Made by a program: the position numbers and the translations under genes
The notes under the pieces: generated by a model
Databases searched by the model: none
Told to the model about the DNA's origin: nothing
What the model saw: only the letters and a program-made list of their open reading frames with translations
Shown: positions 3,572 through 63,108 of the stretch, piece after piece
How positions within the stretch are numbered: the first letter of the stretch is position 1
How the letters are laid out: each line of letters begins with the position of its first letter
Source: Candidatus Planktophila lacus
GTDB taxonomy: Bacteria; Actinomycetota; Actinomycetes; Nanopelagicales; Nanopelagicaceae
NCBI RefSeq assembly: GCF_002287925.1
Contig: NZ_CP016769.1
Location: forward strand, 1,178,001-1,242,000
Direction: 5' to 3'
Length of the DNA stretch: 64,000 nt

Positions 3572-3590
3572 GATCTTGCTCCAGTCTTCG

Positions 3591-3812
3591 TTACTTGTAA
3601 CGGTAAATAATTCGACCTCGGGTGAGGTCATATGGACTTAGTTCTACGATCACACGATCACCAGGAAGGATGCGAATGTAGTTCTTTCGCATCTTGCCGC
3701 TGATGTGCGCAAGAATTTTGTGCCCATTAGTTAGTTCAACGCGAAACATTGCGTTAGGTAAAGCTTCTGCAACGGAACCTTCGATCTCGATGGCGCCATC
3801 TTTGCTAGCCAC
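3591..3812 (-). CDS. infA: Translation initiation factor IF-1
   Basis: IF-1 binds the ribosomal A site and guides initiation. It is a single S1-like OB fold of 73 residues: [50 protein letters not shown]. The frame is open further upstream to 3875, but the family begins with M-A-(K/S)-KDGAIE, so I chose the GTG that gives VASKDGAIE. The ribosome binding site is weak. Another in-frame GTG lies two codons upstream (3818). The gene heads infA-rpmJ-rpsM-rpsK-rpsD-rpoA-rplQ. Confidence 0.94.
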
Positions 3813-4003
3813 TAACACCCACTTCTGTTTCAAATTGAACCCACGCCCGTTTGCGAGCGCGGTTGCACCCACCAAAAACCCTCAGGATTTTCGCTAGGCG
3901 CGAAGGTGCATTCTAAAGCCCCGCCCCTTATAAAGGGAAATTGGCTAAATCGCCCCTATTGGACCCCCTAGACACGCCCAGACTTTCGGGCGAAAAGGCG
4001 GTT

Positions 4004-4975
4004 TTAGCTCTGGAAATCCTCGCGGCGGACCCAGGTGACTAGCACCCAGAGTGAGCAGACCAAGGTCACGATCAGCGCTGGGAAGTAGAAGATCTTGTCT
4101 ACGAAGATGCCGATCGGTGGAGATCCTGGCATGAGCCCGCGAAGTGAGATCAAAGAATAGGTAAGTGCTGCAGCCCAGGTAAGAGATGAAAGCGTTGGTG
4201 GGCGCTGACCGGTAACCACCATGTAAGTCATGATCGTCACTGAAACCATCGCTGTGATCATGAGTAACAGAATGATTGTTACGAGCAACTTAGTTGAATT
4301 TGAGCGAACTGCCTCAAATACTGAAGAAGATTGACCGTTGTTGAATTCTTCCACTGCCATATCAAATGACTTTGCATCATCCATAGTCACGGTGGTGAAG
4401 GCATCGTTCCAAAGGCCATGGATCATATGGATATCAAAAGTGTCGATCTTCTTTGTGTAATCCAGTGGCAAGATGTTTAGCGTTGCTTGATCGCCATCTT
4501 CCAAAGTACCGATCGCGCTCATTGGTATCTCAAATGAATACTTATCCATTGGATACCAGCCAACATCAGAACGTGCACCAGCACCTGGTTGCTCATCTAT
4601 CTGAACATCAAAGCCACCAGTTGGAACATCTTTCTTAAAGCTATAAGTATTACTTCCACCATTACTGGCTCCGATTACCGAGTCAACAATCAAATCAACA
4701 TCTTGACTAGGCACCCAACCGCTCTTTAAGCGGTAACCAACATCGTCGCTATTTGGCCAAGGCAGTACACGTGCATTTGCCGTTCCCTCAAGTGGATTAA
4801 CTCCGGTGATCTGAACCAATAGTTCGAGGCGATTATCCGAGCTCATCTCAATCAACTTGTCATCGATCGCAGTTGCATCATCGGCTGGGTTCTGTGAAAT
4901 CACCACAACTATTCCGAGATAGGCAACCGTGATCAAGATAAAGGTCTGAAAGAACTTGGTGCGGAAAACTTTCAC
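4004..4975 (-). CDS. Membrane protein, DUF4436-like
   Basis: A 323-residue integral membrane protein of unknown function. There is one N-terminal transmembrane helix (about 8-28), an exported beta-rich region (about 35-225) and three C-terminal hydrophobic helices (about 228-318). This topology and the PMDKYSFEIPMSA segment resemble the DUF4436 family of actinobacterial membrane proteins; that match is from memory and only moderately sure. GTG start. It begins eight bases after the stop of the secreted paralogue upstream, so it is probably the last gene of that operon and may be its membrane partner. Confidence 0.7.
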   Translation of the reverse strand: MKVFRTKFFQTFILITVAYLGIVVVISQNPADDATAIDDKLIEMSSDNRLELLVQITGVNPLEGTANARVLPWPNSDDVGYRLKSGWVPSQDVDLIVDSVIGASNGGSNTYSFKKDVPTGGFDVQIDEQPGAGARSDVGWYPMDKYSFEIPMSAIGTLEDGDQATLNILPLDYTKKIDTFDIHMIHGLWNDAFTTVTMDDAKSFDMAVEEFNNGQSSSVFEAVRSNSTKLLVTIILLLMITAMVSVTIMTYMVVTGQRPPTLSSLTWAAALTYSLISLRGLMPGSPPIGIFVDKIFYFPALIVTLVCSLWVLVTWVRREDFQS

Positions 4976-4983
4976 AAGAGCCC

Positions 4984-6750: not shown

Positions 6751-6754
6751 ATCT

Positions 6755-8464: not shown

Positions 8465-10143
8465 TTCTTCTTATAGCCTTTCGGACAAACTGGATTTACT
8501 GCGGTCACCTTCTTACTTGTCTTTCCCTTTAGGCAAGTGATTGAGCTCTTCTTGATCGCGGCCGGCTTCACCGGCACCACTGGGGCTGCTGCCTCTTGAG
8601 TCAGCTTTACTCTTACTGTTGGTGAAGAGAAGGTGAAGTTATAGGCGGCAAGATTGAGGAAACCATCTTTTTCGCGAACCAAAGTTGTGGCAATGTTCGG
8701 TTCGCCAGATTCAGAGACAATAGAAATAGTTGCGCCAATTGGCGCTTGCGAGAATCCGTATAGGCATCTTGCAACTACTGAACTCATCACTAAATCGTAA
8801 GTACCCTTGAATACATCCCCTGTAGAAGTTAAGTGCGGTGCTGCGACTTTATAATCCAACACACCTTCGTTTTTATCAAAGCTAGGTGGACCGTCTAAGT
8901 ACTGTGCAGCATTTGTTGAAACTACTCCAGCGAACCCATTACTCTTAGCAAAACATGGACTTTCATTTTTGGTGTCACCAAAAGAGATCATCGTCTTGAG
9001 CATCCAAGCTGTGGGCATACCTTGTGCTTTATCACCGATAACTGGAAGCCAATTAACAAACTCTTTCATTGTGTTGGCATTGTTACCATCATTGCCATCG
9101 CGTCGTAGAGCGATTTCTGAAAGTGGTTGATCTTTTGTGCCAAAAGTTGTGCTTCCCCAGTTGGGAATACCTGAATAGTAATTTTTTAGCCCTGCAGGCA
9201 TGGCGTCGTTATTAACCCAAACATCAATAAGTGGAACCTTGATTGCATTTGCCTGAACTGTAAGTAATTGAGTTCCGGCGGCTTCTTTTACCAATGTTAT
9301 TGATGGTGCCTTCATGCGTCCATGCAGCCAACCGTTTAACTGGTTGTTCATTCTAAATTGCAAACCGAATGCAACGTTTTGTGGAAGTGGAAAACCTTTT
9401 GCGCATTCGGTTACCGAAGACATAACGCATTTTCCTGTCTCTGGAGGATTTCCGACTGGCGCTCCAATTAACCAATCCGTTGTTGGATATTGCTTTGGAT
9501 CAGTAGACATTGAGCTAAAACCAAAAGTGCCTTTTTCTATAGCAATAGCAAATATTCCAGTCTGCATGCGTTGCATCAAGAATTTGGCAGTCGGTGAATT
9601 ATTGGTATCACGAACGCCGACCATTTCAGATTTAATTAAATATAAATCTCCACCAGCATGTGGCGCATCAGGAATTTTTACAAGTATCGCACCACCACCT
9701 GTTGGCAAATTCTGGGAAGGGTCGCCTTGAAAGTCGTACTTTCCTTTGTCAGCAAAGATTCCAGCTGGTTGAATGTCTAGTTCCTTGCCGTCATCGGTCT
9801 TAGCAAACACCTTGGTAATGCAGTCAACTGTGTTAACAGAGTCGCACTTTGGCAAGATTGCGCGGTAGAACTGTTTTGAAGTGAACTCACAACCTGATTG
9901 CCCAAGTGAAGAGCAAGCCGTTATTGATTCGACACCTTGCGCTGAGTTAACTTTAAAGCTAATGAATCCTGAGTTGAATCGAGTTATTTCTGCTGAATCT
10001 TGGAGTAAATATCCTTGGAAATTCTTAGCTGGAGCAGGAGACGCTAGATGCTGTTCATCATACGAATCTGCGCCATGGGCCAGCGTTGGAGCAATTAGCG
10101 CTACTGAAATCAGTAGAAGTACGAATTTTCCTAAACGCTTCAC
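8461..10143 (-). CDS. Secreted protein with two-Cys C-terminal tail (paralogue C)
   Basis: A 560-residue paralogue of A and B, function unknown. GTG start with a GGGGATC ribosome binding site. The signal peptide has cleavage near LAHGA. Shared blocks are NLPTGGGAILVKIPDAPHAG, GWLHGR, VAAPHL, GTYDLVMSSVVARCLYGF and a Pro/Val/Ala linker. The tail is ITCLKGK, KKVTAV, CPKGYKKK. It is probably the first gene of a C-B-A-membrane protein operon. A strong hairpin in the 123-base gap upstream separates it from paralogue D. Confidence 0.8.
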   Translation of the reverse strand: MKRLGKFVLLLISVALIAPTLAHGADSYDEQHLASPAPAKNFQGYLLQDSAEITRFNSGFISFKVNSAQGVESITACSSLGQSGCEFTSKQFYRAILPKCDSVNTVDCITKVFAKTDDGKELDIQPAGIFADKGKYDFQGDPSQNLPTGGGAILVKIPDAPHAGGDLYLIKSEMVGVRDTNNSPTAKFLMQRMQTGIFAIAIEKGTFGFSSMSTDPKQYPTTDWLIGAPVGNPPETGKCVMSSVTECAKGFPLPQNVAFGLQFRMNNQLNGWLHGRMKAPSITLVKEAAGTQLLTVQANAIKVPLIDVWVNNDAMPAGLKNYYSGIPNWGSTTFGTKDQPLSEIALRRDGNDGNNANTMKEFVNWLPVIGDKAQGMPTAWMLKTMISFGDTKNESPCFAKSNGFAGVVSTNAAQYLDGPPSFDKNEGVLDYKVAAPHLTSTGDVFKGTYDLVMSSVVARCLYGFSQAPIGATISIVSESGEPNIATTLVREKDGFLNLAAYNFTFSSPTVRVKLTQEAAAPVVPVKPAAIKKSSITCLKGKTSKKVTAVNPVCPKGYKKK

Positions 10144-10194
10144 GCGATCCCCAGTCTTAGAAGTTTTTTAGAGTACTTACGAAGAGACCGCCCC

Positions 10195-10220
10195 CGGTTC
10201 ACTAATCTCTTAGTGAACCG
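10195..10220 (-). terminator. Perfect 11-bp hairpin between secreted paralogues D and C
   Basis: Inverted repeat CGGTTCACTAA, loop TCTC, TTAGTGAACCG. It lies just downstream of the paralogue D stop codon on the minus strand. No U-run follows the stem, so it may be a 3'-end stabiliser or a weak or factor-dependent terminator rather than a classical intrinsic one. Confidence 0.4.
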
Positions 10221-10266
10221 AGGAACGGTTTTGCCCTCGTTTATCTATATGGAAGAAGTGTCGAAA

Positions 10267-12153
10267 CTACTTCTTCTTATAACCTGCTGGACATGCTGGC
10301 TTAACTGCAGTGATCTTCTTTACAGCCTTGCCCTTAACGCATGTGATGGTTGTCTTGTTCAAGATCTTGGCAGCAGGCTTGTAGCCCTTCTTGATGCCGA
10401 TCTTGAGCTTTGGACGTGAGTATTCGAAGCCAGATACATCAATGATGATTCGGCCGTTCTTCACGCTGATGTTCTTTAGGAAGGCTGCAGTTCCGCCTTC
10501 TTCTGTTGTTAGCGAGATTTCTAGAGCTGATGCAGCATCGTTTGGATTAGTCATACCCCAAAGAAGTGCAGCATCTGCTGTAGGAATTACCGCCTTGTAG
10601 AAGCCCTTGTTCACTGTCACACCATCTGGTGCAAAGTGAGGAGCAGCTGCGCGCCATGTGAATGCCTTATCCTCTTCGCTCCAGACTGGAGTTGAGAGTC
10701 CGCAGACACCGTTTGAGCCGACGTACATTCCACCGGAAGTACCTTCAACACCGAAGCCGGAGTTGTCGTCGTTGGCTGCCATAGCAATCATCTGGAATTG
10801 ACGAACGTTGGCCTTTGATACGCCTTCTTCGCCTTCGCAATCCTTAACGTTCTTCGCAAGAGGAACAGTTACAGGAGTACCTGTGATTGAGATTGCGTTG
10901 TATTCGCCACCTGGCTCTTGCTTAACAACGATATCTGTACCAACAGCAACGGTAACGCCAGTCTGCATTTCGCCGACGCGAACCTTAACTGTAATTACGA
11001 TATCTGAATCAAGGCTTACTGCATATGCCTTGTTACCGACCTGGCCTGCGAGGTTGGTCTTCTTATCAGCACCTGTAAGTGTTGGAAGAACATCGACGAA
11101 TAGCATGCTTGATACGAACTCGTTAGGAGTACGTGCTTCAACATAAAGTCCGTCATAACCAAGTGCGCCAAGGTTTAGACCTTGCCAATCAGGGTGTGTC
11201 CAGCGACCGACAAGTGCGCGACCGGCTTCAGCTGGCGTTCCAACGGCAACACCTGGAGCTGGTGCAAGTGGAGCTGTTGCAGCTAATTCAGTTGCTTCAG
11301 CAGTTGCGCTTTCGGTTGTTGGAGTTGTTGTAGTTGCAGCAGCTGCTGGATCAGCAGGAACTGCAGCAGGTGTACCGGCAACAGCCCAGCCGTTAACAAG
11401 TGCATCACGAGTTACCCAGATAGGAATGATAATTCCTTCGGTAGCCTTAAATGTCTTGGTAGCAGCATCGTAAGTAGTTCCCCACACTGGACGCTGTTGA
11501 GTTGCTGACAGTTCAGCAAGATCAATAAATGTCACGCCAGTAAAGTTAGCAATCTGCTTTGCTGCATCTGCAGCTGTTGGATAGAAGAAGAAGAACTTAA
11601 CTTCATTATCTTGCACGAAGGCAACTGAGCCCTTGTAGCAAGCACCAAATGTTGATTTAGTTGATGACTTAGTCGCTGGATTAAAGCAATCCATTGGATA
11701 GCTATAGAAATCTAGCGGCTTGTTAATGTCATAGGTCTTTGTTTTTGGATCAAACTTCGCACCCTGTTCTGGGTGATTAGCTGTCCCGAAAAGTGAAGAG
11801 AGATCCTGCATTACGTATTTGCCTGAAGCAAGTACATCGCGCTGGTATTGAGACATCCACCAGTTGTTGTCGATTACTTTTCCACCCTTGATCTGTGCAA
11901 CTGGTGCAAAGAAATCAACTGGTGTCTTCTTAGCTGGAACTTCTGCTCCGCTTGGCACATAGGTCAAAGGAATTTTCTGTCCTGAACCTGTGGCAATTGT
12001 TACTGATTCGATGCAATAAATACCGTTTTGAATTACACAGGCATTCATTGGTGACTTAGGCAGGCGGATGGTTGCAGCACTTGCTGAAGTAGCAGTGAGC
12101 AATCCCGCGAGCATTGCTAGGGACGCAGCCCCAGCGATTAGCTTCTTTTTCAC
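10267..12153 (-). CDS. Secreted protein with two-Cys C-terminal tail (paralogue D, divergent)
   Basis: A 628-residue exported protein, function unknown, and the most divergent of the four. GTG start. The signal peptide has cleavage near ASAAT. Residues about 275-315 are an Ala/Thr-rich low-complexity linker (PAAAATTTTPTTES). The C-terminal module (AAAPHFAPDG, KGFYKAVIP, VSGFEYSRPKLKIGI) aligns by eye with the corresponding part of A-C. The tail is ITCVKGK, KKITAV, CPAGYKKK, here without a Pro-rich spacer. It has its own upstream region with competing hairpins, and downstream the sequence continues to paralogue C after a hairpin. Confidence 0.78.
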   Translation of the reverse strand: MKKKLIAGAASLAMLAGLLTATSASAATIRLPKSPMNACVIQNGIYCIESVTIATGSGQKIPLTYVPSGAEVPAKKTPVDFFAPVAQIKGGKVIDNNWWMSQYQRDVLASGKYVMQDLSSLFGTANHPEQGAKFDPKTKTYDINKPLDFYSYPMDCFNPATKSSTKSTFGACYKGSVAFVQDNEVKFFFFYPTAADAAKQIANFTGVTFIDLAELSATQQRPVWGTTYDAATKTFKATEGIIIPIWVTRDALVNGWAVAGTPAAVPADPAAAATTTTPTTESATAEATELAATAPLAPAPGVAVGTPAEAGRALVGRWTHPDWQGLNLGALGYDGLYVEARTPNEFVSSMLFVDVLPTLTGADKKTNLAGQVGNKAYAVSLDSDIVITVKVRVGEMQTGVTVAVGTDIVVKQEPGGEYNAISITGTPVTVPLAKNVKDCEGEEGVSKANVRQFQMIAMAANDDNSGFGVEGTSGGMYVGSNGVCGLSTPVWSEEDKAFTWRAAAPHFAPDGVTVNKGFYKAVIPTADAALLWGMTNPNDAASALEISLTTEEGGTAAFLKNISVKNGRIIIDVSGFEYSRPKLKIGIKKGYKPAAKILNKTTITCVKGKAVKKITAVKPACPAGYKKK

Positions 12154-34864: not shown

Positions 34865-35566
34865 ATGAGCCTTCACATTGGAGCCCAAAAGGGCGAAATT
34901 TCCGAGAAAATCCTCCTCCCAGGCGACCCTTTAAGGGCGAAATGGGTGGCCGAGAACTACCTCGATGGGGCCAAGCAGTACAACTCGATCCGAAATATGT
35001 TCGGCTATACCGGCACCTACCGCGGTGAGCGGATCTCGGTCCAAGGCACCGGAATGGGCCTTCCTTCTCTATCTATTTACGTAACTGAGCTCTTCAATGA
35101 ACACGGCGTTGAGTCAGCGATCCGTATCGGCACATGCGGTGCGATCCAAGAGAAGACAAAAGTCGGAGATTTAATTTTGGCGATGACGGCATCGACTGAT
35201 TCCAATATCAATCGTCGCTTCACAAACGGTTTGGATTTCGCACCGCATGCCGACTTCGGCTTATTGCAAGCAGCACATGAAGCTTCCAAGAAATTTGATC
35301 GCGTTCATGTTGGTGGAGTTTCATCGATGGATTATTTCTATGATGAAACCGATGCCAACGAAAAATTAATCAAGCACGGTGTACTAGCTCTTGAAATGGA
35401 AGCAAGTCAGTTGTACTCAATCGCTGCACGTAAGGGAAAGAAAGCACTTGCTGTGCTAACTGTTTCCGATCATGTGATCACGCATGAAGCGATGGATGCA
35501 GATGCCAGAGAGCGCACTCTCAATGACATGGTGGAAGTTGCACTCGCTGCGCTAAGCGCTAATTAA
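34865..35566 (+). CDS. deoD: Purine-nucleoside phosphorylase, DeoD type
   Basis: Cleaves purine (deoxy)ribonucleosides with phosphate to base plus (deoxy)ribose 1-phosphate; hexameric NP-I family. The 233 residues show GEISEKILLPGDPLRAKWVA, the RIGTCGAI phosphate-site motif, the ALEMEASQLY ribose-binding motif and SDHVITHEAM with the catalytic Asp. One of few plus-strand genes here. Its last four bases overlap the convergent PPOX-fold gene. Ribose 1-phosphate made here could feed the MtnA-like isomerase at 57608-58621; that link is speculation. Confidence 0.95.
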   Translation: MSLHIGAQKGEISEKILLPGDPLRAKWVAENYLDGAKQYNSIRNMFGYTGTYRGERISVQGTGMGLPSLSIYVTELFNEHGVESAIRIGTCGAIQEKTKVGDLILAMTASTDSNINRRFTNGLDFAPHADFGLLQAAHEASKKFDRVHVGGVSSMDYFYDETDANEKLIKHGVLALEMEASQLYSIAARKGKKALAVLTVSDHVITHEAMDADARERTLNDMVEVALAALSAN

Positions 35567-54508: not shown

Positions 54509-55606
54509 TTAGTAGGCGCGCACCAATTCGCACATGCGAGCCGCGTTATCTGCAAGGTTTCCGCGCGAAAGGGCTCCACCAATCAGTAGCGCGCTGTCAT
54601 TGCCATACATCTTTATCATCTCTGGAATTCGCCCTAAATTCATTCCACCTGCAGGAGCGACAAACATTGGGTTTAACTTGCCAAGTTTTTCACGTGAAAG
54701 CTCTGTTATATCTAGACAATGATCGCTGCTAAAGGCAAAACGTCCACCGATATTTGGAAAGATCGTGATGTCGGCCCCTGCAAGTCTCATCAAAGTGCCC
54801 AAGACAATTCCGTGTGAAATTCCCTCTGCTTTAGAGGTTATTAGTGATCCCAACATGGCAGGGTGTCCCTGAATAGGAAGTGCGATCGAGTCATCGGATG
54901 CGATCTTGCGCAACGAATCAAAGCCAGTTATTCCGGGAAGAATTAACAGCGCACCTGCACCTAAATCTTTTGCCGTGTGTGCAGCGTCAACTATCTGATC
55001 AAATGGAAGATTAAGGCTCGGTGCGTAAACAGATTTTCCACCGGTGACAGCATTTGCCTCTTTTACTGCACGAGAAATTAAAGTGACTCGCTCTTTCCAT
55101 GTCGCCCAAGGTTGATTAGCAAGGCTGTGATCATCTTTAATCAAATCAAATCCCGCTAAGGCTAAGGTGCGGGCCATTTCTGCAAGTGTTTGCGCATAAG
55201 ATCCCATTGGCTTTAGAGCAGTTGAAACAAGGGGGCGGGTTTCTGCGCCAAGTAATTTACGCAATCCACTGATTCCAAAACGAGGTCCACTAAATTTCGC
55301 GAGGAAAGAATCAGGCAGTTTTAAGCCAACAATCTTTACATTAGGGAATAGCGAAACATTTCCCCAGAGCACGTTAAGAAACTGGTTTAACTCTCCGCCA
55401 GTTACATCTGGGTTATAAGAAATAGTAATTAAGTGGCTAGTTTTATCTGAGGATGAAATCTCCTCAACTTTTCCAACCACTTCTTCCTGAATCCAACTTG
55501 GAGCTAATTCATAGGGAAATTCGATCGTCTGTTCAGCACGAATTACATCAGCGATCGACTTTGGGTCTTCGCCAGTGAATTTATAGGTTACGTAGATACG
55601 ATCCAC
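54509..55606 (-). CDS. RuBisCO-like protein (type IV RuBisCO large-chain family)
   Basis: A 365-residue member of the RuBisCO large-chain superfamily, shorter than true RuBisCO. The catalytic lysine is in STALKPMG (K132). The metal site reads IKDDHSLANQ, so the carbamylated-lysine cluster KDDE has His in place of Glu. C-terminal barrel loops GHPAMLGS and LLIGGALSRG bind phosphate in relatives. Family members act as enolases, isomerases or decarboxylases on sugar phosphates, including 3-oxo-isoapionate-4-phosphate decarboxylase (OiaX). A strong GGGGAGG precedes the GTG chosen; an ATG at 55630 is an alternative. Its neighbours suggest sugar-acid catabolism. Confidence 0.85.
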   Translation of the reverse strand: MDRIYVTYKFTGEDPKSIADVIRAEQTIEFPYELAPSWIQEEVVGKVEEISSSDKTSHLITISYNPDVTGGELNQFLNVLWGNVSLFPNVKIVGLKLPDSFLAKFSGPRFGISGLRKLLGAETRPLVSTALKPMGSYAQTLAEMARTLALAGFDLIKDDHSLANQPWATWKERVTLISRAVKEANAVTGGKSVYAPSLNLPFDQIVDAAHTAKDLGAGALLILPGITGFDSLRKIASDDSIALPIQGHPAMLGSLITSKAEGISHGIVLGTLMRLAGADITIFPNIGGRFAFSSDHCLDITELSREKLGKLNPMFVAPAGGMNLGRIPEMIKMYGNDSALLIGGALSRGNLADNAARMCELVRAY

Positions 55607-55640
55607 TTTAAGCGCCTCCCCATTTGCCATGGGCAATTAT

Positions 55641-57611
55641 CTACCTAGGAAATGCCGCCGCAACACCACCATCGACGGCGATAACGCTTCCTGTTGTGCG
55701 TGAAGATTCATCACTTAAGAAGAATGCTGCAGCACGAGCCACATCTAGGCTTCTTACGCGTGCATTTAAAAGATTTCGAGAGGCATAGAAGTCCTCAAGT
55801 TCCTCTGGTTTCACACCATGTGCAGCTGCACGTTGTTCGCGAATACCGCCTTCCCACAACTTGCTGTTATCGAAGACTGCGTCAGGGTTGATTCCGTTGA
55901 AGCGAATTCCAGCGTTTCCACCTTCAAGAGCTGCAATGCGCATCAACTGCAACATTCCTGCCTTGCTAACTGAATATCCACCAAATCCTGCGCCCGGTGC
56001 AAATGCGTTCTTGCTTGCGATGTAAACGATCGAGCCACCCATTTTCTGTTTGCGCATTACCTTCATAGCTTCTTTGGTCAACATAAACGCGCTGGAAAGA
56101 TTTATATCTAAACCGCGGCGCCATTTTTCAATATCCAAGTCTTCAAGCTTGTCGCTGATACCAATACCCGCGTTAATTACAGCGCCATCAAGTCCACCGA
56201 AGTGCTTAATGGTTTTTGTAACTGTCGCCTGAACATCTGCTTCCTTTGATTGATCACCCAATACCAATAGCGGCGGATTACATTTATTCTCAGCGAACTC
56301 TTTCTCAACTTCTAGAAGTCCTTTTTCTTCGATATCGGCAAGGACTACGTGAGCGCCACGTTTTCCGAGTTCAAGTGCCACGCCTCTACCAATGCCGCTG
56401 CCGGCGCCCGTAACGATAATGATGTGTCCATCTAGTTGTGCGGGGGCTGGCTTGTTCTTTAACTTAAATAGCTCCATTGGCCAGTAATCAAAACCAAAGA
56501 TTTCCGCGTCAGAGATTGTGTCTCCATCACCAAATACATCGATGACTCGCGCTGCAACTTTGTGAGTATGTGAAGCGATATCTGCCAGCATCACATTCTC
56601 TTTAATTGTTGTTGCAGCAGTAACTGCACCTACGCCTGGAACAATAATTACGCGTGGATCATTCCCATGGCTTGAATAACCAGCAGGTAGCAGTGACTTA
56701 TTCGCTTCAAAATATGCGCTGTAGTTCTCGCGGAATTCATTGATTCCAGTTTCAGTATCTTCCAAAGTCACTGTTGCTGACTTAGGGCGGATACGCAACA
56801 TATGGTCTGCGCTAGATGCACCTAGAGCCAAGACCTTCTTCAGGTCTGGGCGCGATGCAATTTCAGCTAAACGAGTATCTGTTCTAAGTAACTGCTTCTT
56901 ACCAAGAGTTCCGCGCAACTTTAGAAGCAAATCCTTTAACTCTTCATCGGGCAGATCTTGATGTTGGAAGTTCGCCGCTGGTCGTTTATTAAGTGAATCG
57001 AGGTATTTATCAGCCAACGCCACTGCATCAAGAGTCTTTTGGTAACAACGATCTGAATCTTCATCCCAGACAACTAGGCCGTGATGAGCAAGAACTACAC
57101 CGGCATAATCGCCTAAACCGCCAACTAACTTAGACAGTTCAAAGCCCGGACGAATCCAATCGACATACGCGAATTCTTCACCGAGTGCTTCACGAACTGC
57201 TTTTTCTCCTTGTGGATGATTGGTCAGCGCACAGATCGCATCGGCATGAACGTGATCAATATGTTTAGCGGGAAGAAAACCATGTAAAAGTGTTTCGATG
57301 GATGGACGGCGTGAAGTTGGATCAACCAGAGCTCGAGTTACATAATCAACCATCGTGTCATCATCTAAAGCGTCAAAATCCCGTAACGCTAGTAGTTCTT
57401 CAAGATAAAGCGCTGGGTAATCGCGATCGATCGCGTATTGCATATCTGCGCCAGAACCTTTAACCCAGAGAACCTTCTTAAGGCGACCGAGATGGTCTTT
57501 AACTTCACCTTTACTAGATGTGTTGCCACCGCCGTAAACAACCATTGATTGGTCGGCACCGATCTTCTGTGAACGTGCGACTAGGTCGTGTAATGGCTTT
57601 AGATCACTCAT
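55641..57611 (-). CDS. Bifunctional class II aldolase / short-chain dehydrogenase
   Basis: A 656-residue fusion. Residues about 1-330 form a zinc-dependent class II aldolase (GGGNTSSKG, DHVHADAICAL with HxH, LAHHGLVVW). Residues about 395-656 form an NAD(P)-dependent SDR (VTGAGSGIGRGVALEL, NAGIG, YSVSKAGM with the Tyr-Lys pair). The architecture matches RhaEW-type rhamnulose-1-phosphate aldolase/lactaldehyde dehydrogenase, which splits a 1-phospho-ketose to DHAP plus an aldehyde and oxidises the latter. The ATG overlaps the mtnA-like stop (ATGA). The actual ketose phosphate is unknown. Confidence 0.85.
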   Translation of the reverse strand: MSDLKPLHDLVARSQKIGADQSMVVYGGGNTSSKGEVKDHLGRLKKVLWVKGSGADMQYAIDRDYPALYLEELLALRDFDALDDDTMVDYVTRALVDPTSRRPSIETLLHGFLPAKHIDHVHADAICALTNHPQGEKAVREALGEEFAYVDWIRPGFELSKLVGGLGDYAGVVLAHHGLVVWDEDSDRCYQKTLDAVALADKYLDSLNKRPAANFQHQDLPDEELKDLLLKLRGTLGKKQLLRTDTRLAEIASRPDLKKVLALGASSADHMLRIRPKSATVTLEDTETGINEFRENYSAYFEANKSLLPAGYSSHGNDPRVIIVPGVGAVTAATTIKENVMLADIASHTHKVAARVIDVFGDGDTISDAEIFGFDYWPMELFKLKNKPAPAQLDGHIIIVTGAGSGIGRGVALELGKRGAHVVLADIEEKGLLEVEKEFAENKCNPPLLVLGDQSKEADVQATVTKTIKHFGGLDGAVINAGIGISDKLEDLDIEKWRRGLDINLSSAFMLTKEAMKVMRKQKMGGSIVYIASKNAFAPGAGFGGYSVSKAGMLQLMRIAALEGGNAGIRFNGINPDAVFDNSKLWEGGIREQRAAAHGVKPEELEDFYASRNLLNARVRSLDVARAAAFFLSDESSRTTGSVIAVDGGVAAAFPR

Positions 57612-58621
57612 AGTGTTTGGCCTTCTGCTATTTCGTAGGAATGTTTCTCGGTTATGACTGCACTTATGTACTTTGCTGGCGTTACATCAAAAGCTGGATT
57701 AAAGGTCTTGGCTCCAATTGGTGCTACTTGAATTCCCTTGAAATGAGTTAACTCTTCATCTCCACGTATCTCGATATGTATTTCACTTCCGGTTTTAATG
57801 CTGCGATCAACCGTTGATTCGGGAGCGACAACTAGAAATGGAATTCCTGCAGCGTGACAAGCAAGTGCAACGCTTAGCGAACCAATCTTGTTTGCAGAAT
57901 CACCGTTTTTAGCAATTCGATCTGCGCCAATTAGAGCAGCATCAATTCGACCACTGAGAATCGCCATCGCTGCCGCCCCGTCTGGTTCGATGTGATAAGG
58001 GATATCGGATTTCATTAACTCCCAGGCGGTTAAACGTGAGCCTTGAAGAAGCGGACGAGTTTCATCTGCATAAACCTCTTTAACAAAGCCACGCTTATGC
58101 ATCTCTTTAATGACACCTAGCGCGGTTCCGGTGCCAGTTGTAGCAAGCGAACCAGTGTTGCAATGGGTCAACAAAGTCATTGGCTTACTTCCCAGTTTAT
58201 TGATCAGCCAATCTGCGCCAATATTTCCCATATCAGTACTCGATTGCTTATCTTCACTCGCTAACTGGTGGGCTGCGGCAAGAACTGCATCGCGTCCTTC
58301 TGGCAAATGTTTACGAATCTTCTCAACAGCCCAGGCCAAGTTAACTGCCGTTGGACGTGCATCGCGAAGTAAATCAAGGTTATGTTCTAACTCTTGCGCG
58401 CTATGACCTTTACGTGCAGCCTCATCAATAACCAAGACGACTCCGTAGGCACCAGCGACGCCGAGCGCAGGGGCGCCTCTAACAACCAACCTTTGAATGG
58501 CATCGATATATGGGGCTAGTTCGTCGTAAGAAATATAAGTTTCCGAGATGGGAATCTGTGTTTGATCAAGCAGAACAATCTTGTTTTCTTTCCAGACAAT
58601 CGCTTCGAACCCGCTAGACAT
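57608..58621 (-). CDS. mtnA: S-methyl-5-thioribose-1-phosphate isomerase-like (MtnA family)
   Basis: Aldose-1-phosphate to ketose-1-phosphate isomerase of the eIF2B-like fold, 337 residues. Diagnostic blocks: RGAPALGVAGAYGV, LLTHCNTGSLATTGTGTALG with the catalytic Cys, ADETRPLLQGSRLTAWEL, IGADRIAKNGDSANKIGS with the catalytic Asp, and VVAPESTVD. Known substrates are 5-methylthioribose-1-P and, in the DHAP shunt, 5-deoxyribose-1-P. Coupled to the aldolase downstream, which fits ketose-1-P cleavage. No mtnK, mtnP or mtnB-E genes are in the window. Confidence 0.85.
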   Translation of the reverse strand: MSSGFEAIVWKENKIVLLDQTQIPISETYISYDELAPYIDAIQRLVVRGAPALGVAGAYGVVLVIDEAARKGHSAQELEHNLDLLRDARPTAVNLAWAVEKIRKHLPEGRDAVLAAAHQLASEDKQSSTDMGNIGADWLINKLGSKPMTLLTHCNTGSLATTGTGTALGVIKEMHKRGFVKEVYADETRPLLQGSRLTAWELMKSDIPYHIEPDGAAAMAILSGRIDAALIGADRIAKNGDSANKIGSLSVALACHAAGIPFLVVAPESTVDRSIKTGSEIHIEIRGDEELTHFKGIQVAPIGAKTFNPAFDVTPAKYISAVITEKHSYEIAEGQTL

Positions 58622-58679
58622 TTAAATGCTCCTTATTCAAGGTCTTGAACTTATCACTTCGCTTCGCAAATAGAGATTG

Positions 58680-59465
58680 CTAAGCGTATGAATCCCAGTC
58701 GCCACCACTCAAGATTCCACCATCTATGACAATAGATTGACCAGTTATATATGAAGATGCATCCGTTGCCAGAAAGATTACTGATCCGATGATTTCGTCA
58801 GGATTTGAGAGGCGACCAATCGGAGTTGTTTCATCAAACCATTTTGTGCGGTGGGGTTCGCCCCATAGCGGCTTGGTGAAATCAGTTTTGATAACTGAAG
58901 GTTCAATGCAGTTAACTCGAATTTTATCTTTTGCCCATTCACGAGCGGTGCTGCGGGTTATTGAAGTAACCGCTGCTTTGGTCGCTGCATAAACAGAGAT
59001 CGTATTGAAGCTATAACGAGCGCTTAGAGAGCTCATATTTACAATCACTCCACCGCCGGCCGCCTTCATGATCGGATGTGCCGCCTGCGAAATAAAATAG
59101 ATCGCCTTCATATTTACCGAAACTATGGCGTTGAAATCTTCTTCGGTTACTTCAGTTATAGGTTTGCGACGATTTATTCCCGCAGTATTGATAACGATAT
59201 CTAGGCCACCCATCAACGCATTTGCTTCATTAACAACGCTGGCGCATTGATCAGGGCTAGATAAATCAGCGCTAATTGAGAAAGCCTTGCCTGATTCGCC
59301 AGAAATGGATTTGCGGACTTCATCGAGGCGTTCTTCATTTAGATCTTGGATAGTTACATCAGCGCCGCGTTCGGCAAAGGCTTTGGCGATCAACGCACCT
59401 AGCGTTCCGGCGCCACCAGTTATGAGAACGCGCTTCTGCTTAAGATCAAATAGTGGATCAAACAT
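58680..59465 (-). CDS. Short-chain dehydrogenase/reductase (gluconate-5-dehydrogenase-like)
   Basis: A 261-residue classical SDR: cofactor motif TGGAGTLG, NTAGINRR, catalytic YAATKAAV (Tyr and Lys), and the C-terminal VIDGGILSGGDWD. Closest by eye to gluconate 5-dehydrogenase, KduD and similar sugar-acid oxidoreductases. It could oxidise the sugar acid made by the lactonase-like protein upstream. Its ATG overlaps that gene by eight bases, while 58 bases follow before the mtnA-like gene. Confidence 0.8.
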   Translation of the reverse strand: MFDPLFDLKQKRVLITGGAGTLGALIAKAFAERGADVTIQDLNEERLDEVRKSISGESGKAFSISADLSSPDQCASVVNEANALMGGLDIVINTAGINRRKPITEVTEEDFNAIVSVNMKAIYFISQAAHPIMKAAGGGVIVNMSSLSARYSFNTISVYAATKAAVTSITRSTAREWAKDKIRVNCIEPSVIKTDFTKPLWGEPHRTKWFDETTPIGRLSNPDEIIGSVIFLATDASSYITGQSIVIDGGILSGGDWDSYA

Positions 59466-61221
59466 TTGCTACCCCTGTAATTTCTAAATAAGTAACGCTC
59501 TCGGGAGTTAAAGTCTGTGGCTTTAAATCAATTCCAGAGAATTTCACTTCCTGCTCAATGGTACTGAAATTCACCAAAATAGCCTCTGTTTTTTCAGCTG
59601 ATGTAATGATCAGGCAATCAACTAACTCTGGAAGAGATGAAGCAGTTGGCCTGGCATGAGTAAACCCTTTGAGATGCTTGAACAAGCGCCATACTGGAAA
59701 TTCTTCACCTGCTTTACTAGCAAAGTTGAGTGCATCTTCACTTCCAGTAGATATCTCGCGTATGCCACGCCATCCCAGAGTTTCGAAGTAAGTCACGGTT
59801 GAAATTGACTCAGACTCTGCAATCGAGCGGATAGACATTGCTGTCCAGCCTTCCGCCAACCAAGTGCGCTGGCGGGCATCGACCGACGATGGCAGAGGTG
59901 TATTGCTGACATCTTTATCGGGTTGAGTTGCATTTGGGTTGTACCTAGGACGTAGCGTTATTGGCCCAATACTTACCTTTTTTCCTTTGGCAATCCGATG
60001 AGCATTTGTGGAAATCACTTTCTGGGTAGCAGTGTTTTGTATAAGAGTTCGATCGTCAAATGAGTGCACCTGGGGGTTAATTGAAAAATTGACTTGATCA
60101 ACGAAATCGACTGAGCCTTGATTGCGATTGAGTTCGGTGAAGTACAGATCTGTACCACCAATGATTTTCGACTTATCCCCTAGTAACTCTTCGGCCGCTT
60201 GAATAAAACCAAGTGGCGCTGTTTTATCGCTTACCGAGAAGATATAGAAAGAACGAACCTGATCCTTTAATTCAGCTATTGGCTGCAGTATTGCTTGAAG
60301 TTGCTGCGGGCTATCGGCGGTTATCGCAAGATCAAGATCAATCTTTAGCTTCTGAGTTACCAGTAACGCCTTCTCCACTGCAGAGCGAATTTGAGAATTG
60401 CCGTTAAGTGCCAGGCGAAGATGTTTAATCGCAAGGTCCTCAAACCCCGCATACTCACTGACGATTAAATGTGCGGGATCTTCACTTAGCCCCAAACCAA
60501 TTTCGGGAAGTTTAATCTCTTCGGCTCCGACTGTAATAACGGCGCTTTCATTCTTTGAAATTGCTGTCGTGTGCTCGCCGGAAATTGAGATGGTTATCTT
60601 TTGGCTAAGCACCTCCCCCGGAGTAACTTGCGCAGGAAAGGGTAGAGAAATTGGTGTGCAGTAAGTCTTATATGAGGCATCACTCCAGTTACGGTGATCT
60701 TCGCTTTCAAATATCTCACCTTTGAAATTAACTGATACAACTTGCCCGCTTTGAAGCTTATGACTGATTCCAGATAAATTTAAGAATGGTTGATTTGGAG
60801 AAATCGCATCTGGAAATCTGGATATTTCTACAGCGCCATCTGCCTTAGTTAATTCACATTCGCGGCCAGCTAAGCCTGCAATGGGATGAAGCAGGCAGAG
60901 CCCCAAGCGGTTTCTCATAAATGACACTGCTGTAGATGCGCTAAACCCGTAGGTGATTTCTCCGCTTTCCGAGCCGGTTATCTCTAACTCAACAGATAAA
61001 TCTTTAGCGTCGTGCGAACCCTGCGCTTTGATCTTGGCACTGAACGAACGATCAGCAACATCCCAAATCTCATCTTTGATAACAAAAGGTCGAGAAGTCC
61101 AGTTAATATCCTGGAATACGAGGTAGATCCGGCGAATTGCCTCTTCACTGCCGTTACTGATATTCCAAAGACTTCCCTCGGAATACTCCAGAGTTAACGG
61201 ACCAGCGACAAGTTTTCTCAT
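59458..61221 (-). CDS. Three-domain protein resembling D-apionolactonase (ApnL)
   Basis: A 587-residue cytoplasmic protein. It appears to have an N-terminal beta domain (about 1-215), a central alpha/beta barrel-like region (about 230-505; RPRYNPNAT, DVSNTPLPSSVDARQ) and a small C-terminal beta domain (about 510-587). The segment FESEDHRNWSDASYKTY (about 171-187) matches my memory of a signature of the D-apionate lactonase family, whose N-terminal/TIM-barrel/C-terminal layout is the same. ApnL opens D-apionolactone to D-apionate. The call rests on recollection and on the adjacent Gfo/Idh/MocA gene; it could be another glycan-acting protein. Confidence 0.55.
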   Translation of the reverse strand: MRKLVAGPLTLEYSEGSLWNISNGSEEAIRRIYLVFQDINWTSRPFVIKDEIWDVADRSFSAKIKAQGSHDAKDLSVELEITGSESGEITYGFSASTAVSFMRNRLGLCLLHPIAGLAGRECELTKADGAVEISRFPDAISPNQPFLNLSGISHKLQSGQVVSVNFKGEIFESEDHRNWSDASYKTYCTPISLPFPAQVTPGEVLSQKITISISGEHTTAISKNESAVITVGAEEIKLPEIGLGLSEDPAHLIVSEYAGFEDLAIKHLRLALNGNSQIRSAVEKALLVTQKLKIDLDLAITADSPQQLQAILQPIAELKDQVRSFYIFSVSDKTAPLGFIQAAEELLGDKSKIIGGTDLYFTELNRNQGSVDFVDQVNFSINPQVHSFDDRTLIQNTATQKVISTNAHRIAKGKKVSIGPITLRPRYNPNATQPDKDVSNTPLPSSVDARQRTWLAEGWTAMSIRSIAESESISTVTYFETLGWRGIREISTGSEDALNFASKAGEEFPVWRLFKHLKGFTHARPTASSLPELVDCLIITSAEKTEAILVNFSTIEQEVKFSGIDLKPQTLTPESVTYLEITGVANV

Positions 61222-61228
61222 TTATCTA

Positions 61229-62263
61229 CTACTTGAGTAGTGAGCCAACGTTAAAGACTTGACCTGACTCGGCTGATTCATATGCGCCCAAGGTGATATC
61301 CAATAACTTGAGAGTATCTTCGCCGCTGGTTTCGGGCGTTCTGCCGGTTTTCAAACATTCAATCCAGTGCTTATTTACATTTACGACGCTATCTTGAATT
61401 CCATTCCAGGGCTGAGAAGTCCAACCATGATCCGGAATTACAACAACTTCATTAGTTACAGAAGTACCCGATACAACTTGAAGATGGTAATCAGCGGACA
61501 GGGTGATCGCCCCCTTGGTTCCCTCAATTATTACGAAGGTCTGCGGATAGGTGCTGTGATCTGATCTAGTCTCGTAACTAGCATCAACGATGCAGCTGGC
61601 ATCTGGCATATCCATCAATATCGTGGCTGAATCTTCACCTTTAATTATTGGATTTACTCGATGTGCCGAAGTAAAGATCGTATTTGGTTCACCAATAAAG
61701 TAGCGCGCAAGATCGAAGAGGTGAACTGCAACGTCAACGATAATCATTCGTTCGCTTTCAACTAGCCAAGATTGTGCCGAGTAAACATCGTGCGCAGTTC
61801 TAAATGAAATTCGCCCGAAGAACGGGCGACCAATTGCGCCGCTATCGATAATCTCTTTGATTTTTCGCATTGGGGTCTGGAATCTAAAATTCTCGTGAAC
61901 CATAAAGGGCAAGCCTTTATCTGACATCTCCTTAACCATTGACTTTGCATCAGCCATATCCCAAGCAAGTGGTTTCTGACAGATTGCTGCAACGCCATGC
62001 TTTGCCGCTAGTTCGACCATATATTTATGAGTTGGTGGAGTCGTAGCAATATCTACGAAATCTAAATCTTCATTGGCAAATAACTCTTCCGCACTTGCAT
62101 AAGCCTTGCCTCCGAAATTGGCAGCAGCCAACTTCGCTTTTTCAAAATCAACATCGCAAGTTGCAATTAGTTCGACATCGGGATTTTGGCTCCATGCATG
62201 GAGGTGGTTCTGGGCAAAGAAGCCACATCCAATTAAGGCATATCTATATTTCTTCTGGGTCAT
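61229..62263 (-). CDS. Gfo/Idh/MocA oxidoreductase, D-apiose dehydrogenase-like
   Basis: A 344-residue NAD(P)-dependent sugar oxidoreductase: Rossmann start ALIGCGFFAQNHLHAW, DIATTPPTHKYMVELA, then the active-site motif as ICQKPLA (Gln replacing Glu of the usual EKP), MVHENFRFQTPM, and the C-terminal domain with HLFDLARYFIG and KGEDSATILM. These details resemble D-apiose dehydrogenase (ApsD) as I remember it. The product, apionolactone, would be the substrate of the adjacent lactonase-like protein. The sugar is not proven. ATG overlaps the sulfurtransferase stop (ATGA). Confidence 0.6.
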   Translation of the reverse strand: MTQKKYRYALIGCGFFAQNHLHAWSQNPDVELIATCDVDFEKAKLAAANFGGKAYASAEELFANEDLDFVDIATTPPTHKYMVELAAKHGVAAICQKPLAWDMADAKSMVKEMSDKGLPFMVHENFRFQTPMRKIKEIIDSGAIGRPFFGRISFRTAHDVYSAQSWLVESERMIIVDVAVHLFDLARYFIGEPNTIFTSAHRVNPIIKGEDSATILMDMPDASCIVDASYETRSDHSTYPQTFVIIEGTKGAITLSADYHLQVVSGTSVTNEVVVIPDHGWTSQPWNGIQDSVVNVNKHWIECLKTGRTPETSGEDTLKLLDITLGAYESAESGQVFNVGSLLK

Positions 62264-63108
62264 AGCGCAATTTCTCTACTTGGATCTGTGATCCACTCGC
62301 TCCAAGAACCAACATACATTTTGCTTCCCGTGAAACCAGCGTGCTCCATAGCTAAGACATTTTGTGCAGCAGTTACGCCAGAGCCGCAATAGAAAATTGT
62401 GTTATCGGCGCTAACACCGTTGGTAAGTGATTCGTAGTGCTTCTTTAAATCAGCCTTGCTCTTAAAGAGCCCTTGCGCATCTGTAATTTCAGCGCGATCT
62501 GCCAGACCAGCGCCAGCGATATGTCCGCGTATTGGGTCATAGTATTTTCCGCCCCCGTGATATCCCTCTGCACCTCTGGAATCAAATACGCAGTAATTGG
62601 AATCATTTCTGGCCATTTCAACTTTTTCGACTTCGACTAAGAGATCGTTACGTAGCTTTGGAATGAAATTTGTAGGCGTTAAAACTTTCTTCTCTTGGTT
62701 TAAAGGTAAAGATTCGCGGTTCCATGCATTTAGGCCGCCATCTAGAACGGCAACTTTTTCATGTCCCATCCAGCGAAACATCAACCAAAGGCGTGATGCC
62801 GCCATCAAACCTGATTCTGCGTCGTAACAAATTACTTGGGTATCTGGGGTTATTCCCCAGTTAGAGAGAGTCTTAGTGAACGCTGCAACCGTTGGAAAAG
62901 GTCGGCGACCAGTTACACCCGGAATAATTTCTCCAGACATATCAGTAGATAAATCTGCGTAATGTGCACCTGGTATGTGGGATTGGTTATAAACCTTTCT
63001 TCCCCAGGATTCGTCATCTAATGTGAAGCGAACATCAAAAATTACAAACTCAGAATTTTCTAAGTTGCGCGCCAAATCGCTAGTGGATATCAACGTTGTA
63101 TAACTCAT
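62260..63108 (-). CDS. Thiosulfate/3-mercaptopyruvate sulfurtransferase (tandem rhodanese)
   Basis: A 282-residue protein with two rhodanese domains: an inactive N-terminal one (VIFDVRFTLDDESWGRKVYN, HIPGAHYADLSTDM) and an active C-terminal one whose persulphide Cys lies in FYCGSGVTAAQN. CGSGVTA is typical of 3-mercaptopyruvate sulfurtransferases, though thiosulfate may also serve. It is the first gene of the leftward operon, divergent from ilvD with only 47 bases between. Whether it works with the sugar genes is unknown. Confidence 0.88.
   Translation of the reverse strand: MSYTTLISTSDLARNLENSEFVIFDVRFTLDDESWGRKVYNQSHIPGAHYADLSTDMSGEIIPGVTGRRPFPTVAAFTKTLSNWGITPDTQVICYDAESGLMAASRLWLMFRWMGHEKVAVLDGGLNAWNRESLPLNQEKKVLTPTNFIPKLRNDLLVEVEKVEMARNDSNYCVFDSRGAEGYHGGGKYYDPIRGHIAGAGLADRAEITDAQGLFKSKADLKKHYESLTNGVSADNTIFYCGSGVTAAQNVLAMEHAGFTGSKMYVGSWSEWITDPSREIAL

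What the first reader, a model, noticed from the sequence alone, without database searches (positions are those of the whole stretch)
54509..62263. Candidate branched-sugar (apiose/apionate) catabolic cluster built around a RuBisCO-like protein
Seen: six co-oriented, tightly packed genes encode a RuBisCO-like protein, an aldolase/SDR fusion, an MtnA-type isomerase, an SDR, a three-domain ApnL-like protein and an ApsD-like Gfo/Idh/MocA oxidoreductase. Known: in characterised oxidative D-apiose pathways ApsD makes apionolactone, ApnL opens it, and a RuBisCO-like enzyme (OiaX or OiaT) handles 3-oxo-isoapionate-4-phosphate. Inference: this freshwater actinobacterium may consume apiose from duckweed or other plant pectin by a route that joins these enzymes to an MtnA/aldolase end, giving DHAP. 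ApnO and the kinase OiaK are not in the window, so the route would be a new variant or be completed elsewhere.
Basis: partly seen in the sequence, partly recalled or inferred. Interest (0 to 1): 0.85.

Follow-up and report, generated by a model that had tools for sequence, protein, structure and literature searches.

The report
RuBisCO-like methylthioribose salvage beside apiose genes
A small freshwater actinobacterium carries, side by side, a gene set that probably recycles a sulfur-bearing waste sugar with a RuBisCO-like enzyme and the first genes of a separate route for the plant sugar apiose; far relatives of the RuBisCO-like gene are often paired with an unusual transketolase-like enzyme.

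Summary
The six genes are real but form two modules. (1) 54509-58621 (RuBisCO-like protein, aldolase/SDR fusion, MtnA) fits 5'-deoxynucleoside (methylthioadenosine-type) salvage, not apiose breakdown. The RLP scores 77 on the OiaX model (cut-off 700) and lies apart from apionate-cluster RLPs in a tree. Among 201 genomes of the order, 28 of 29 RLP genomes have MtnA, and 16 of 17 genomes with a cupin like that of the MTA-isoprenoid shunt have the RLP. Elsewhere in this genome lie that cupin beside an O-acetylhomoserine sulfhydrylase, and a methylthioinosine phosphorylase with a deaminase and a nucleoside-type importer. (2) 58680-62263 (SDR, ApnL-like, Gfo) does resemble an apiose front end: the Gfo protein is 46-48% identical to those beside curated ApnL, and an ApnO-like gene lies elsewhere; no OiaK-type kinase was found. 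Most novel: in 60 of 80 related loci (Actinomycetota to Lokiarchaeota) the RLP sits beside a split transketolase in which three canonical substrate-site residues are replaced in every copy aligned (60 N, 65 C chains). In the order it nearly alternates with the cupin. The searches made found no paper on this pairing; only open-licence papers are held.

The parts
54509..55606 (-). RuBisCO-like protein, DeepYkr-like; proposed 5-(methylthio)ribulose-1-P 1,3-isomerase (start at GTG 55606 or TTG 55636)
   Evidence: KDDH and LKPMG invariant in all 18 sequences
55641..57611 (-). class II aldolase / short-chain dehydrogenase fusion, RhaD-type; proposed aldol cleavage of the same ketose-1-P to DHAP + aldehyde, and aldehyde oxidation or reduction
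   Evidence: TIGR02632 516.7, cut-off 567.75; within 12 kb of the RLP in 38 of 80 related loci
57608..58621 (-). MtnA-type aldose-1-phosphate isomerase
   Evidence: (TIGR00512 392.3 bits, cut-off 279)
58680..59465 (-). SDR oxidoreductase, start of the apiose-like module
   Evidence: present with ApnL and Gfo in the loci of G000, G009, G057 and G180
59458..61221 (-). ApnL-like lactonase homologue
   Evidence: NF049900 262.6 bits, cut-off 750; some conserved blocks kept
61229..62263 (-). ApsD-like Gfo/Idh/MocA sugar dehydrogenase
   Evidence: 46.5-48.1% identity to Gfo beside curated ApnL on three alphaproteobacterial plasmids
62260..63108 (-). rhodanese / 3-mercaptopyruvate sulfurtransferase-like gene, first gene of the run by overlap; role unknown
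   Evidence: travels with the SDR-ApnL-Gfo block in G009, G057, G180

Best explanation
The stretch holds two abutting modules. The left module is the core of a 5'-deoxynucleoside salvage pathway. Shown by sequence: elsewhere in the same genome a nucleoside-type (BMP) ABC importer, an S-methyl-5'-thioinosine phosphorylase and a TRZ/ATZ-family deaminase form one run of genes, and a cupin lies beside an O-acetylhomoserine sulfhydrylase. Inferred chemistry: MTA (or 5'-deoxyadenosine) is deaminated and phosphorolysed to a 5-substituted ribose-1-phosphate; MtnA makes the ribulose-1-phosphate; the RLP moves the carbonyl (1,3-isomerisation) to give 1-methylthio-xylulose-5-phosphate; the cupin releases methanethiol, leaving DXP for isoprenoids, and methanethiol becomes methionine. 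The aldolase/SDR fusion is a parallel drain of the same ribulose-1-phosphate to DHAP and an aldehyde. The right module (SDR, ApnL-like, ApsD-like) is a separate apiose/apionolactone-type oxidation front end whose likely continuation (ApnO-like plus a PF01261 protein, with a ribose-type importer) lies at about 1.395 Mb in the genome and needs no RLP.
For: RLP best solved match 3qfw (253.7 bits phmmer, 296.5 profile; next best 154.2 and 197.6). RLP versus other genes in 201 genomes (overlaps): MtnA in 28 of 29 RLP genomes; cupin in 17 genomes, 16 of them RLP+; RLP-type split transketolase (80% identity or more) in 16, all RLP+. In genus g10 (G094, G116, G175) the cupin match lies 0.55-0.58 kb from the RLP. 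Own cupin 50% identical to the cupin beside an RLP on a Terrarubrum plasmid; it is next to an OAH sulfhydrylase in 4 of 4 loci read (own copy 594.1 bits, cut-off 495.1; the other three judged by their printed N-termini). Phosphorylase 245.6 bits, cut-off 223; importer-phosphorylase-deaminase order in 6 of 6 genomes read, all close kin; phosphorylase and deaminase directly next to the RLP in G043. The order RLP, cupin, OAH sulfhydrylase is experimental in Rhodospirillum rubrum and Rhodopseudomonas palustris (PMC5893883, PMC4958253; passages read). Right module.
Against: No activity is shown for any of these proteins. The R. rubrum cupin uses glutathione, which actinobacteria are thought to lack (recalled). 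The deaminase is under the cut-off of all 22 models listed and could serve other adenine compounds. Nine genomes (G000, 2, 9, 12, 57, 103, 169, 180, 190) carry the RLP and the ApnO-like gene together, and no other genome of the 201 has that ApnO-like gene; eight of the nine also have the cupin. They are close kin by the RLP tree, so co-occurrence there cannot separate the two modules. The seven genes run in one direction without a clear break, so they may be transcribed together. The fork that joins cupin-linked and transketolase-linked RLPs apart from MtnW has support 94/96, just under the usual mark, and the tree carries long-branch warnings. The ApnL-like protein keeps 38 of 98 polar residues invariant in three curated ApnL proteins, hardly more than the remote paralogue elsewhere (35). 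No R. rubrum RLP sequence was in hand; that 3qfw is from R. palustris is recalled.
Confidence: 0.74

Rival explanations
1. One apiose pathway: ApsD, ApnL and the RLP with aldolase and MtnA together turn apiose into DHAP.
For: The genes are adjacent and co-oriented; ApsD-like and ApnL-like identities hold; apiose clusters in rhizobia and kin also hold an RLP; the ApnO-like gene and this ApnL occur only in RLP+ genomes of the 201.
Against: The RLPs of those clusters are 29-33% identical over 138-268 of 365 residues, and the window RLP misses the OiaX model by a wide margin. No OiaK-type kinase in 9 of 9 genomes searched. The RLP occurs without this ApnL in 24 of 29 RLP genomes, and ApnL was near it in 2 of 92 other loci.
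Confidence: 0.07
2. The true substrate is 5'-deoxyadenosine / 5-deoxyribose: the RLP turns 5-deoxyribulose-1-P straight into 1-deoxyxylulose-5-P, so the methylthio step is not needed.
For: The same chemistry with H in place of SCH3; DHAP-shunt enzymes take both sugars (PMC6079011, PMC12632272, passages read); clusters with MtnK and sugar importers and no cupin in the stretch read.
Against: In the own genome the cupin and OAH sulfhydrylase point to a methylthio substrate; the phosphorylase passes the methylthioinosine model.
Confidence: 0.25
3. General ribose or nucleoside catabolism: ribose-1-P to ribulose-1-P to xylulose-5-P, feeding the pentose phosphate pathway.
For: Ribose-type and nucleoside-type importers beside the operons; a general purine nucleoside phosphorylase in two of the loci scanned (L053, L234).
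Against: MtnK of nine genomes passes the methylthioribose kinase cut-off and MtnA the methylthioribose-1-P model; the linked transketolase has lost canonical substrate-site residues.
Confidence: 0.1
4. Both modules act on one unknown 5-modified sugar: Gfo and ApnL-like enzymes oxidise it, RLP and aldolase cut it. The nearby sulfolactate-like genes would fit a sulfosugar.
For: Co-orientation; genes resembling sulfolactate dehydrogenase and galactarate dehydratase lie just beyond the window.
Against: The modules are separable: the RLP without ApnL in 24 of 29 RLP genomes, and other genes (an ABC importer) directly beside MtnA in G012, G103 and G169.
Confidence: 0.05

Closest known systems
MTA-isoprenoid shunt of Rhodospirillum rubrum and Rhodopseudomonas palustris (MtnP, MtnA, DeepYkr RLP, cupin methylsulfurylase, OAH sulfhydrylase)
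   Same: MtnA, RLP, cupin, OAH sulfhydrylase and an MTA-family phosphorylase are all encoded; RLP and cupin are neighbours in three genomes of the same family
   Different: Actinobacterial; phosphorylase of the methylthioinosine type with a deaminase and a nucleoside-type importer; RLP away from the cupin in this genome; thiol co-substrate unknown
DHAP shunt (MtnK or MtnP, MtnA, class II aldolase Ald2/DrdA)
   Same: MtnA plus a class II aldolase with the chemistry to make DHAP and an aldehyde
   Different: The aldolase is a RhaD-type fusion with an SDR; no MtnK over cut-off in this genome. Direct comparison with Ald2/DrdA was not made
Oxidative D-apiose/apionate pathways (ApsD, ApnL, ApnO, OiaK, OiaX/OiaT or OiaC; Carter et al. 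2018, recalled, not held)
   Same: ApsD-like and ApnL-like pair in the window; ApnO-like and a PF01261 protein elsewhere
   Different: RLP not of the group found in apionate clusters; no OiaK-type kinase; ApnL homologue far under the curated cut-off
Split-chain transketolase of Carboxydothermus hydrogenoformans (6yaj/6yak)
   Same: Two-chain layout, ThDP motifs and catalytic Glu kept in the RLP-linked enzymes of relatives
   Different: His of both GHP motifs and the Asp of GEDG are replaced in every RLP-linked copy aligned; this type is not present in the window's genome

Membership tests
OiaX (3-oxo-isoapionate-4-phosphate decarboxylase) | passes NF042437 (cut-off 700) | tested here: not met
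   77.4 bits, residues 69-209 only; Shinella and Sinorhizobium 780.6 and 785.8; two other apionate-cluster RLPs also miss it, at 453.2 and 409.1
OiaX/OiaT apionate RLPs | groups with RLPs of apionate clusters in a tree | tested here: not met
   four such RLPs form one group, 100/95, without the window RLP; the OiaT label on two of them is mine
Apionate cluster with RLP | four-carbon acid sugar kinase (OiaK-type, PF17042) in the genome | tested here: not met
   0 of 9 genomes incl. own; 3 of 14 control genomes ring
ApnL (D-apionate lactonase) | passes NF049900 (cut-off 750) | tested here: not met
   262.6 bits, though full length; three alphaproteobacterial ApnL 805.1, 1043, 899.2
ApsD-ApnL pair | Gfo protein adjacent to ApnL and close to those of apionate clusters | tested here: met
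   46.5-48.1% identity over 337-341 residues; adjacent
MTA-isoprenoid shunt | MtnA | tested here: met
   TIGR00512 392.3 bits, cut-off 279
MTA-isoprenoid shunt | RLP of the group that holds cupin-linked RLPs, apart from MtnW and OiaX | tested here: met
   tree of 89 rows, fork 94/96, just under the usual mark; 3qfw pairs with the cupin-linked Terrarubrum RLP 100/100; R. rubrum's own sequence not in hand
MTA-isoprenoid shunt | cupin-type methylsulfurylase | tested here: met
   50% identity to an RLP-adjacent cupin; no NCBIfam hit at E 1e-20 for either cupin, so by homology and linkage only
MTA-isoprenoid shunt | phosphorylase for MTA or methylthioinosine | tested here: met
   NF006599 245.6 bits, cut-off 223; MTAP model 243.1, cut-off 274.85 not reached
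MTA-isoprenoid shunt | O-acetylhomoserine sulfhydrylase | tested here: met
   TIGR01326 594.1 bits, cut-off 495.1
MTA-isoprenoid shunt | RLP 1,3-isomerase activity | not testable with these tools
   needs enzyme assay
RhaD aldolase/dehydrogenase (TIGR02632) | passes cut-off 567.75 | tested here: not met
   516.7 bits
Methylthioribose kinase route | MtnK (TIGR01767, cut-off 275) in own genome | tested here: not met
   best 46.2 bits in G000; over cut-off in 9 of 201 genomes, 8 of them RLP+
DHAP shunt | aldolase of the Ald2/DrdA family | not tested
   no reference sequence was compared

The most novel reading that the evidence does not exclude
RLPs of this family are the partner of a previously undescribed ThDP enzyme: the RLP turns a 5-substituted ribulose-1-phosphate into a 1-substituted xylulose-5-phosphate, and the remodelled split transketolase cuts it into glyceraldehyde-3-phosphate and a two-carbon fragment bearing the substituent. 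This would be a third fate of the methylthioribose/deoxyribose skeleton, besides the cupin route and the DHAP shunt, found in Bacteria and in Lokiarchaeota; the window's clade would have swapped that enzyme for the cupin.
Probability: 0.5. Interest if true: 0.82.

Novelty: new variant of a known kind. Interest (0 to 1): 0.62.

Why it matters
It moves a RuBisCO-like protein of freshwater actinobacteria from supposed plant-sugar breakdown to recycling of SAM-derived waste nucleosides, and shows that a lineage of RLPs spread through several phyla is tied to a specialised, remodelled transketolase. If that enzyme works as proposed it would give an in-vivo role to many unassigned RLPs and an oxygen-independent use of methylthioribose or deoxyribose carbon.

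Tried and rejected
Apiose route through the RLP: rejected on the OiaX model, tree, gene order and missing kinase. RLP as MtnW enolase: model scores 216.2 and 168.3 against cut-offs 409 and 513.6; MtnW lies outside in the tree. RLP as the only source of DXP: rejected, the genome has a normal dxs (620.4 bits). Own-genome second split transketolase (L230) as the RLP partner: it keeps the GHP histidines (though it also lacks the GEDG Asp) and is 34% identical, so it is not the RLP-linked type; that it serves all the same cannot be excluded. ApnL fold: AlphaFold2 on 3 sequences gave pLDDT 39.4 and was not used further. PDB search with the ApnL-like protein gave only chance hits (E 0.51 and 0.78).

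Literature searches: 'apionate + RuBisCO-like' 0 papers; 'apiose + catabol + RuBisCO' 13 listed, one read in passages; 'RuBisCO-like protein + transketolase + methylthioribose' 0; two of '5-deoxyribose / transketolase / mtnK' 9 listed, three read in passages (PMC12632272, PMC8102628, PMC6302742); two of 'isoprenoid shunt / RuBisCO-like / methylthio' 22 found, 20 listed, four read in passages (PMC5893883, PMC4958253, PMC6079011, PMC6302742); 'RuBisCO-like protein + transketolase + operon' 4, listing only; 'DeepYkr' 2; 'Nanopelagicales + methylthioadenosine' 0; two of 'apiose / apionate / decarboxylase' 70 found, 20 listed. Nearest in print that I saw: a passage of PMC8102628 says that a promiscuous transketolase step was suggested for 5-deoxyadenosine salvage in Methanocaldococcus jannaschii. 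Only open-licence PMC papers are held, so absence from print is not shown; a thesis on the DeepYkr family (Warlick 2013, cited in PMC5893883) was not available.

Rows dropped: from the RLP tree I left out 12 of 92 loci as partial or duplicate (L057, L058, L123, L130, L143, L146, L151, L155, L161, L168, L180, L191). Of 63 and 68 transketolase N and C chains found, 60 and 65 long enough were aligned. The nine plasmid RLP loci counted were chosen by me from the 40 rows shown of 363 records. In counting RLP+ genomes I left out five of the 34 listed: four with weak hits (31-33 bits, open frames of 469-479 aa, probably true RuBisCO) and one 37-residue fragment (G134). Of 33 genomes matched, 17 at 29-43% identity were not counted as the RLP-linked transketolase.
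Full report
What is there. Pfam and NCBIfam give a RuBisCO-like protein (RLP), a class II aldolase/SDR fusion of RhaD type, an MtnA isomerase (392.3 bits, cut-off 279), an SDR, a full-length ApnL homologue (262.6 bits, cut-off 750) and a Gfo/Idh/MocA protein. A rhodanese gene (62260-63108) overlaps the last by 4 bases. The genome is a single 1.46 Mb contig, 99.96% complete; named relatives include records labelled Candidatus Nanopelagicaceae and Candidatus Planktophila, so it is probably a freshwater acI-type actinobacterium (inference).

The RLP is not of the apionate kind. It scores 77.4 bits on the OiaX model over part of its length, while RLPs from Shinella and Sinorhizobium clusters score 781 and 786 against a cut-off of 700; two more RLPs from apionate-type clusters (Microvirga, Rhizobium etli) also miss the cut-off, at 453 and 409. 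Its best solved relative is 3qfw (253.7 bits; the next, 4nas, 154.2). In a tree of 89 rows the RLPs of those four clusters form their own group (100/95), the two MtnW proteins another (100/100), and the window RLP lies inside a well-supported set of 9 rows that includes two transketolase-linked RLPs (99/92), itself nested among many more; 3qfw pairs with a cupin-linked RLP (100/100) inside the larger group (fork 94/96). The program warns of long branches for RuBisCO and three plasmid RLPs. KDDH and LKPMG are invariant in all 18 sequences aligned.

What travels with it. I read the surroundings of the RLP in 28 genomes of the order. Recurrent neighbours are the aldolase/SDR, MtnA, a split transketolase, MtnK (TIGR01767, 388 bits in G088, cut-off 275), ribose-type ABC genes and a GntR regulator; ApnL/Gfo/SDR are in G000, G009, G057 and G180 (and ApnL in G002). 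Over 201 genomes: RLP 29, MtnA 39 with 28 shared, RLP-type transketolase at 80% identity or more 16, all RLP+, cupin 17 with 16 shared, MtnK over cut-off 9 with 8 shared, this ApnL 5, all RLP+ (three others have only a remote paralogue at about 25%). Among the 29 RLP genomes, 12 have the cupin only, 12 the transketolase only, 4 both, 1 (74% complete) neither (Fisher p 5e-4, not corrected for kinship).

The rest of the pathway in this genome. PNP_UDP-family genes: 9 of 9 RLP-negative genomes searched have one; 19 of 20 RLP-positive ones have two or more, the other has one. One of the own genome's two passes the methylthioinosine phosphorylase cut-off (245.6 over 223; the other, in the window at 34865-35566, is DeoD-type). 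It is followed by a TRZ/ATZ deaminase and preceded by an ABC importer whose binding protein is PnrA/BMP-type; the same order is seen in 6 of 6 genomes read, all close kin, and in G043 phosphorylase and deaminase lie directly beside the RLP. A cupin at 497,552-498,007 is 50% identical to the cupin that sits beside an RLP on a Terrarubrum plasmid and 61-64% to cupins 0.55-0.58 kb from the RLP in three genomes of the same family; next to it is an O-acetylhomoserine sulfhydrylase (594.1 bits, cut-off 495.1), and by their printed N-termini also in G012, G057 and G088. In R. rubrum and R. palustris this enzyme set is shown by experiment to turn MTA into methanethiol and DXP and on to methionine, and the RLP to make 1-methylthioxylulose-5-P from 5-methylthioribulose-1-P (PMC5893883 and PMC4958253, passages read). 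R. palustris also runs an aldolase branch beside it, as the aldolase/SDR fusion here suggests. The genome has its own dxs, so DXP from this route would be a by-product or supplement.

The right-hand module. Plasmid clusters of Sinorhizobium sp. B11, Microvirga ossetica and Shinella sp. H4-D48 hold Gfo and ApnL side by side with an RLP, a four-carbon acid sugar kinase and an ApnO-type protein (the ApnO label is recalled); the window Gfo is 46.5-48.1% identical to theirs, the ApnL-like protein 27-30%. It keeps blocks such as NWSDASYKTY and YFTELNR, but only 38 of the 98 polar residues invariant in the three curated proteins are kept in all three Nanopelagicales copies compared, against 35 in the remote paralogue. 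At 1,394,946-1,395,788 lies an ApnO-like protein (40-42% to theirs), followed by a PF01261 protein, an SDR, that remote ApnL paralogue and a ribose-type importer. The ApnO-like gene is in 9 of 201 genomes, all RLP+. No PF17042 kinase was found in 9 genomes. So an apiose route may exist, by way of a non-RLP decarboxylase (OiaC is recalled as a PF01261 protein), without the RLP. This part is weaker: the ApnL cut-off is not met and the substrate is untested.

The wider find. Of the 80 best relatives of the RLP kept from named genomes, 60 have the transketolase C chain within 600 bases, 44 MtnA, 24 MtnK and 38 the aldolase/SDR within 12 kb (scan), from Actinomycetota to Bacillota (Clostridium ljungdahlii: RbsBAC-MtnK-MtnA-TKn-TKc-RLP), Chloroflexota, Elusimicrobiota, Planctomycetota and a Lokiarchaeote. 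Of nine plasmid loci of this RLP type that I read, eight have the pair and one the cupin instead; in Ponticoccus a purine nucleoside phosphorylase, deaminase, MtnA, molybdopterin oxidoreductase, the pair and the RLP run together, with a divergent BMP-type importer. The paired enzyme keeps the ThDP and metal residues and the catalytic Glu, but the His of the first GHP motif is Tyr in 60 of 60, the second GHP His is Met, Leu or Ile in 60 of 60 (the exact column is unsure), and the Asp of GEDG is Gly in 65 of 65, unlike the C. hydrogenoformans split transketolase and human transketolase. That these residues contact the substrate's hydroxyls (C1 of the donor for the second His) is recalled from work on yeast transketolase; if so, their loss fits a donor without a C1 hydroxyl, which is what the RLP would supply. 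This mechanism is inference.

Verdict. For this genome it is a new variant (actinobacterial, deaminase first, RhaD-type aldolase) of known pathways; the transketolase-linked relatives may be something new.

Noticed in passing
G000:C1:1242838-1247244 (L060:12839-17245), just beyond the window: YeiH-family exporter, sulfolactate-dehydrogenase-like, hydroxyacid-dehydrogenase and galactarate-dehydratase-like genes in a run, resembling sulfolactate breakdown (naming recalled), followed by a Gfo gene and a LacD-type aldolase gene.
   Followed up: partly
window 62260-63108: Rhodanese gene overlaps the Gfo gene and travels with the SDR-ApnL-Gfo block in the four genomes read; no role proposed.
   Followed up: no
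L228 (G021) 2702-9733: MtnA, aldolase/SDR, MtnK and an amino-acid-type ABC importer without any RLP in the genome, suggesting that the aldolase branch can work alone and that this importer may carry the sugar.
   Followed up: partly
L235 (Vibrio nigripulchritudo plasmid) 5994-11629: Transketolase pair and RLP with a FGGY kinase, and no MtnK or MtnA in the stretch read, as if a ketose-1-phosphate were made directly.
   Followed up: no
L031 and places in G115, G147, G133, G022, G043: Weak RLP-query hits in 418-479 aa open frames look like true RuBisCO large subunits in a few genomes of the order.
   Followed up: no
L230:5419-8586 (G000 about 1.414 Mb): A second split transketolase pair beside a glycerol-kinase-like FGGY gene; the RLP-linked C chain used as query matches such genes at 34-36% in ten genomes, seven of them RLP+.
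   Followed up: partly
L251:6992-8110 (NT-25 plasmid): An RLP beside the transketolase pair is annotated as a transcriptional regulator.
   Followed up: no
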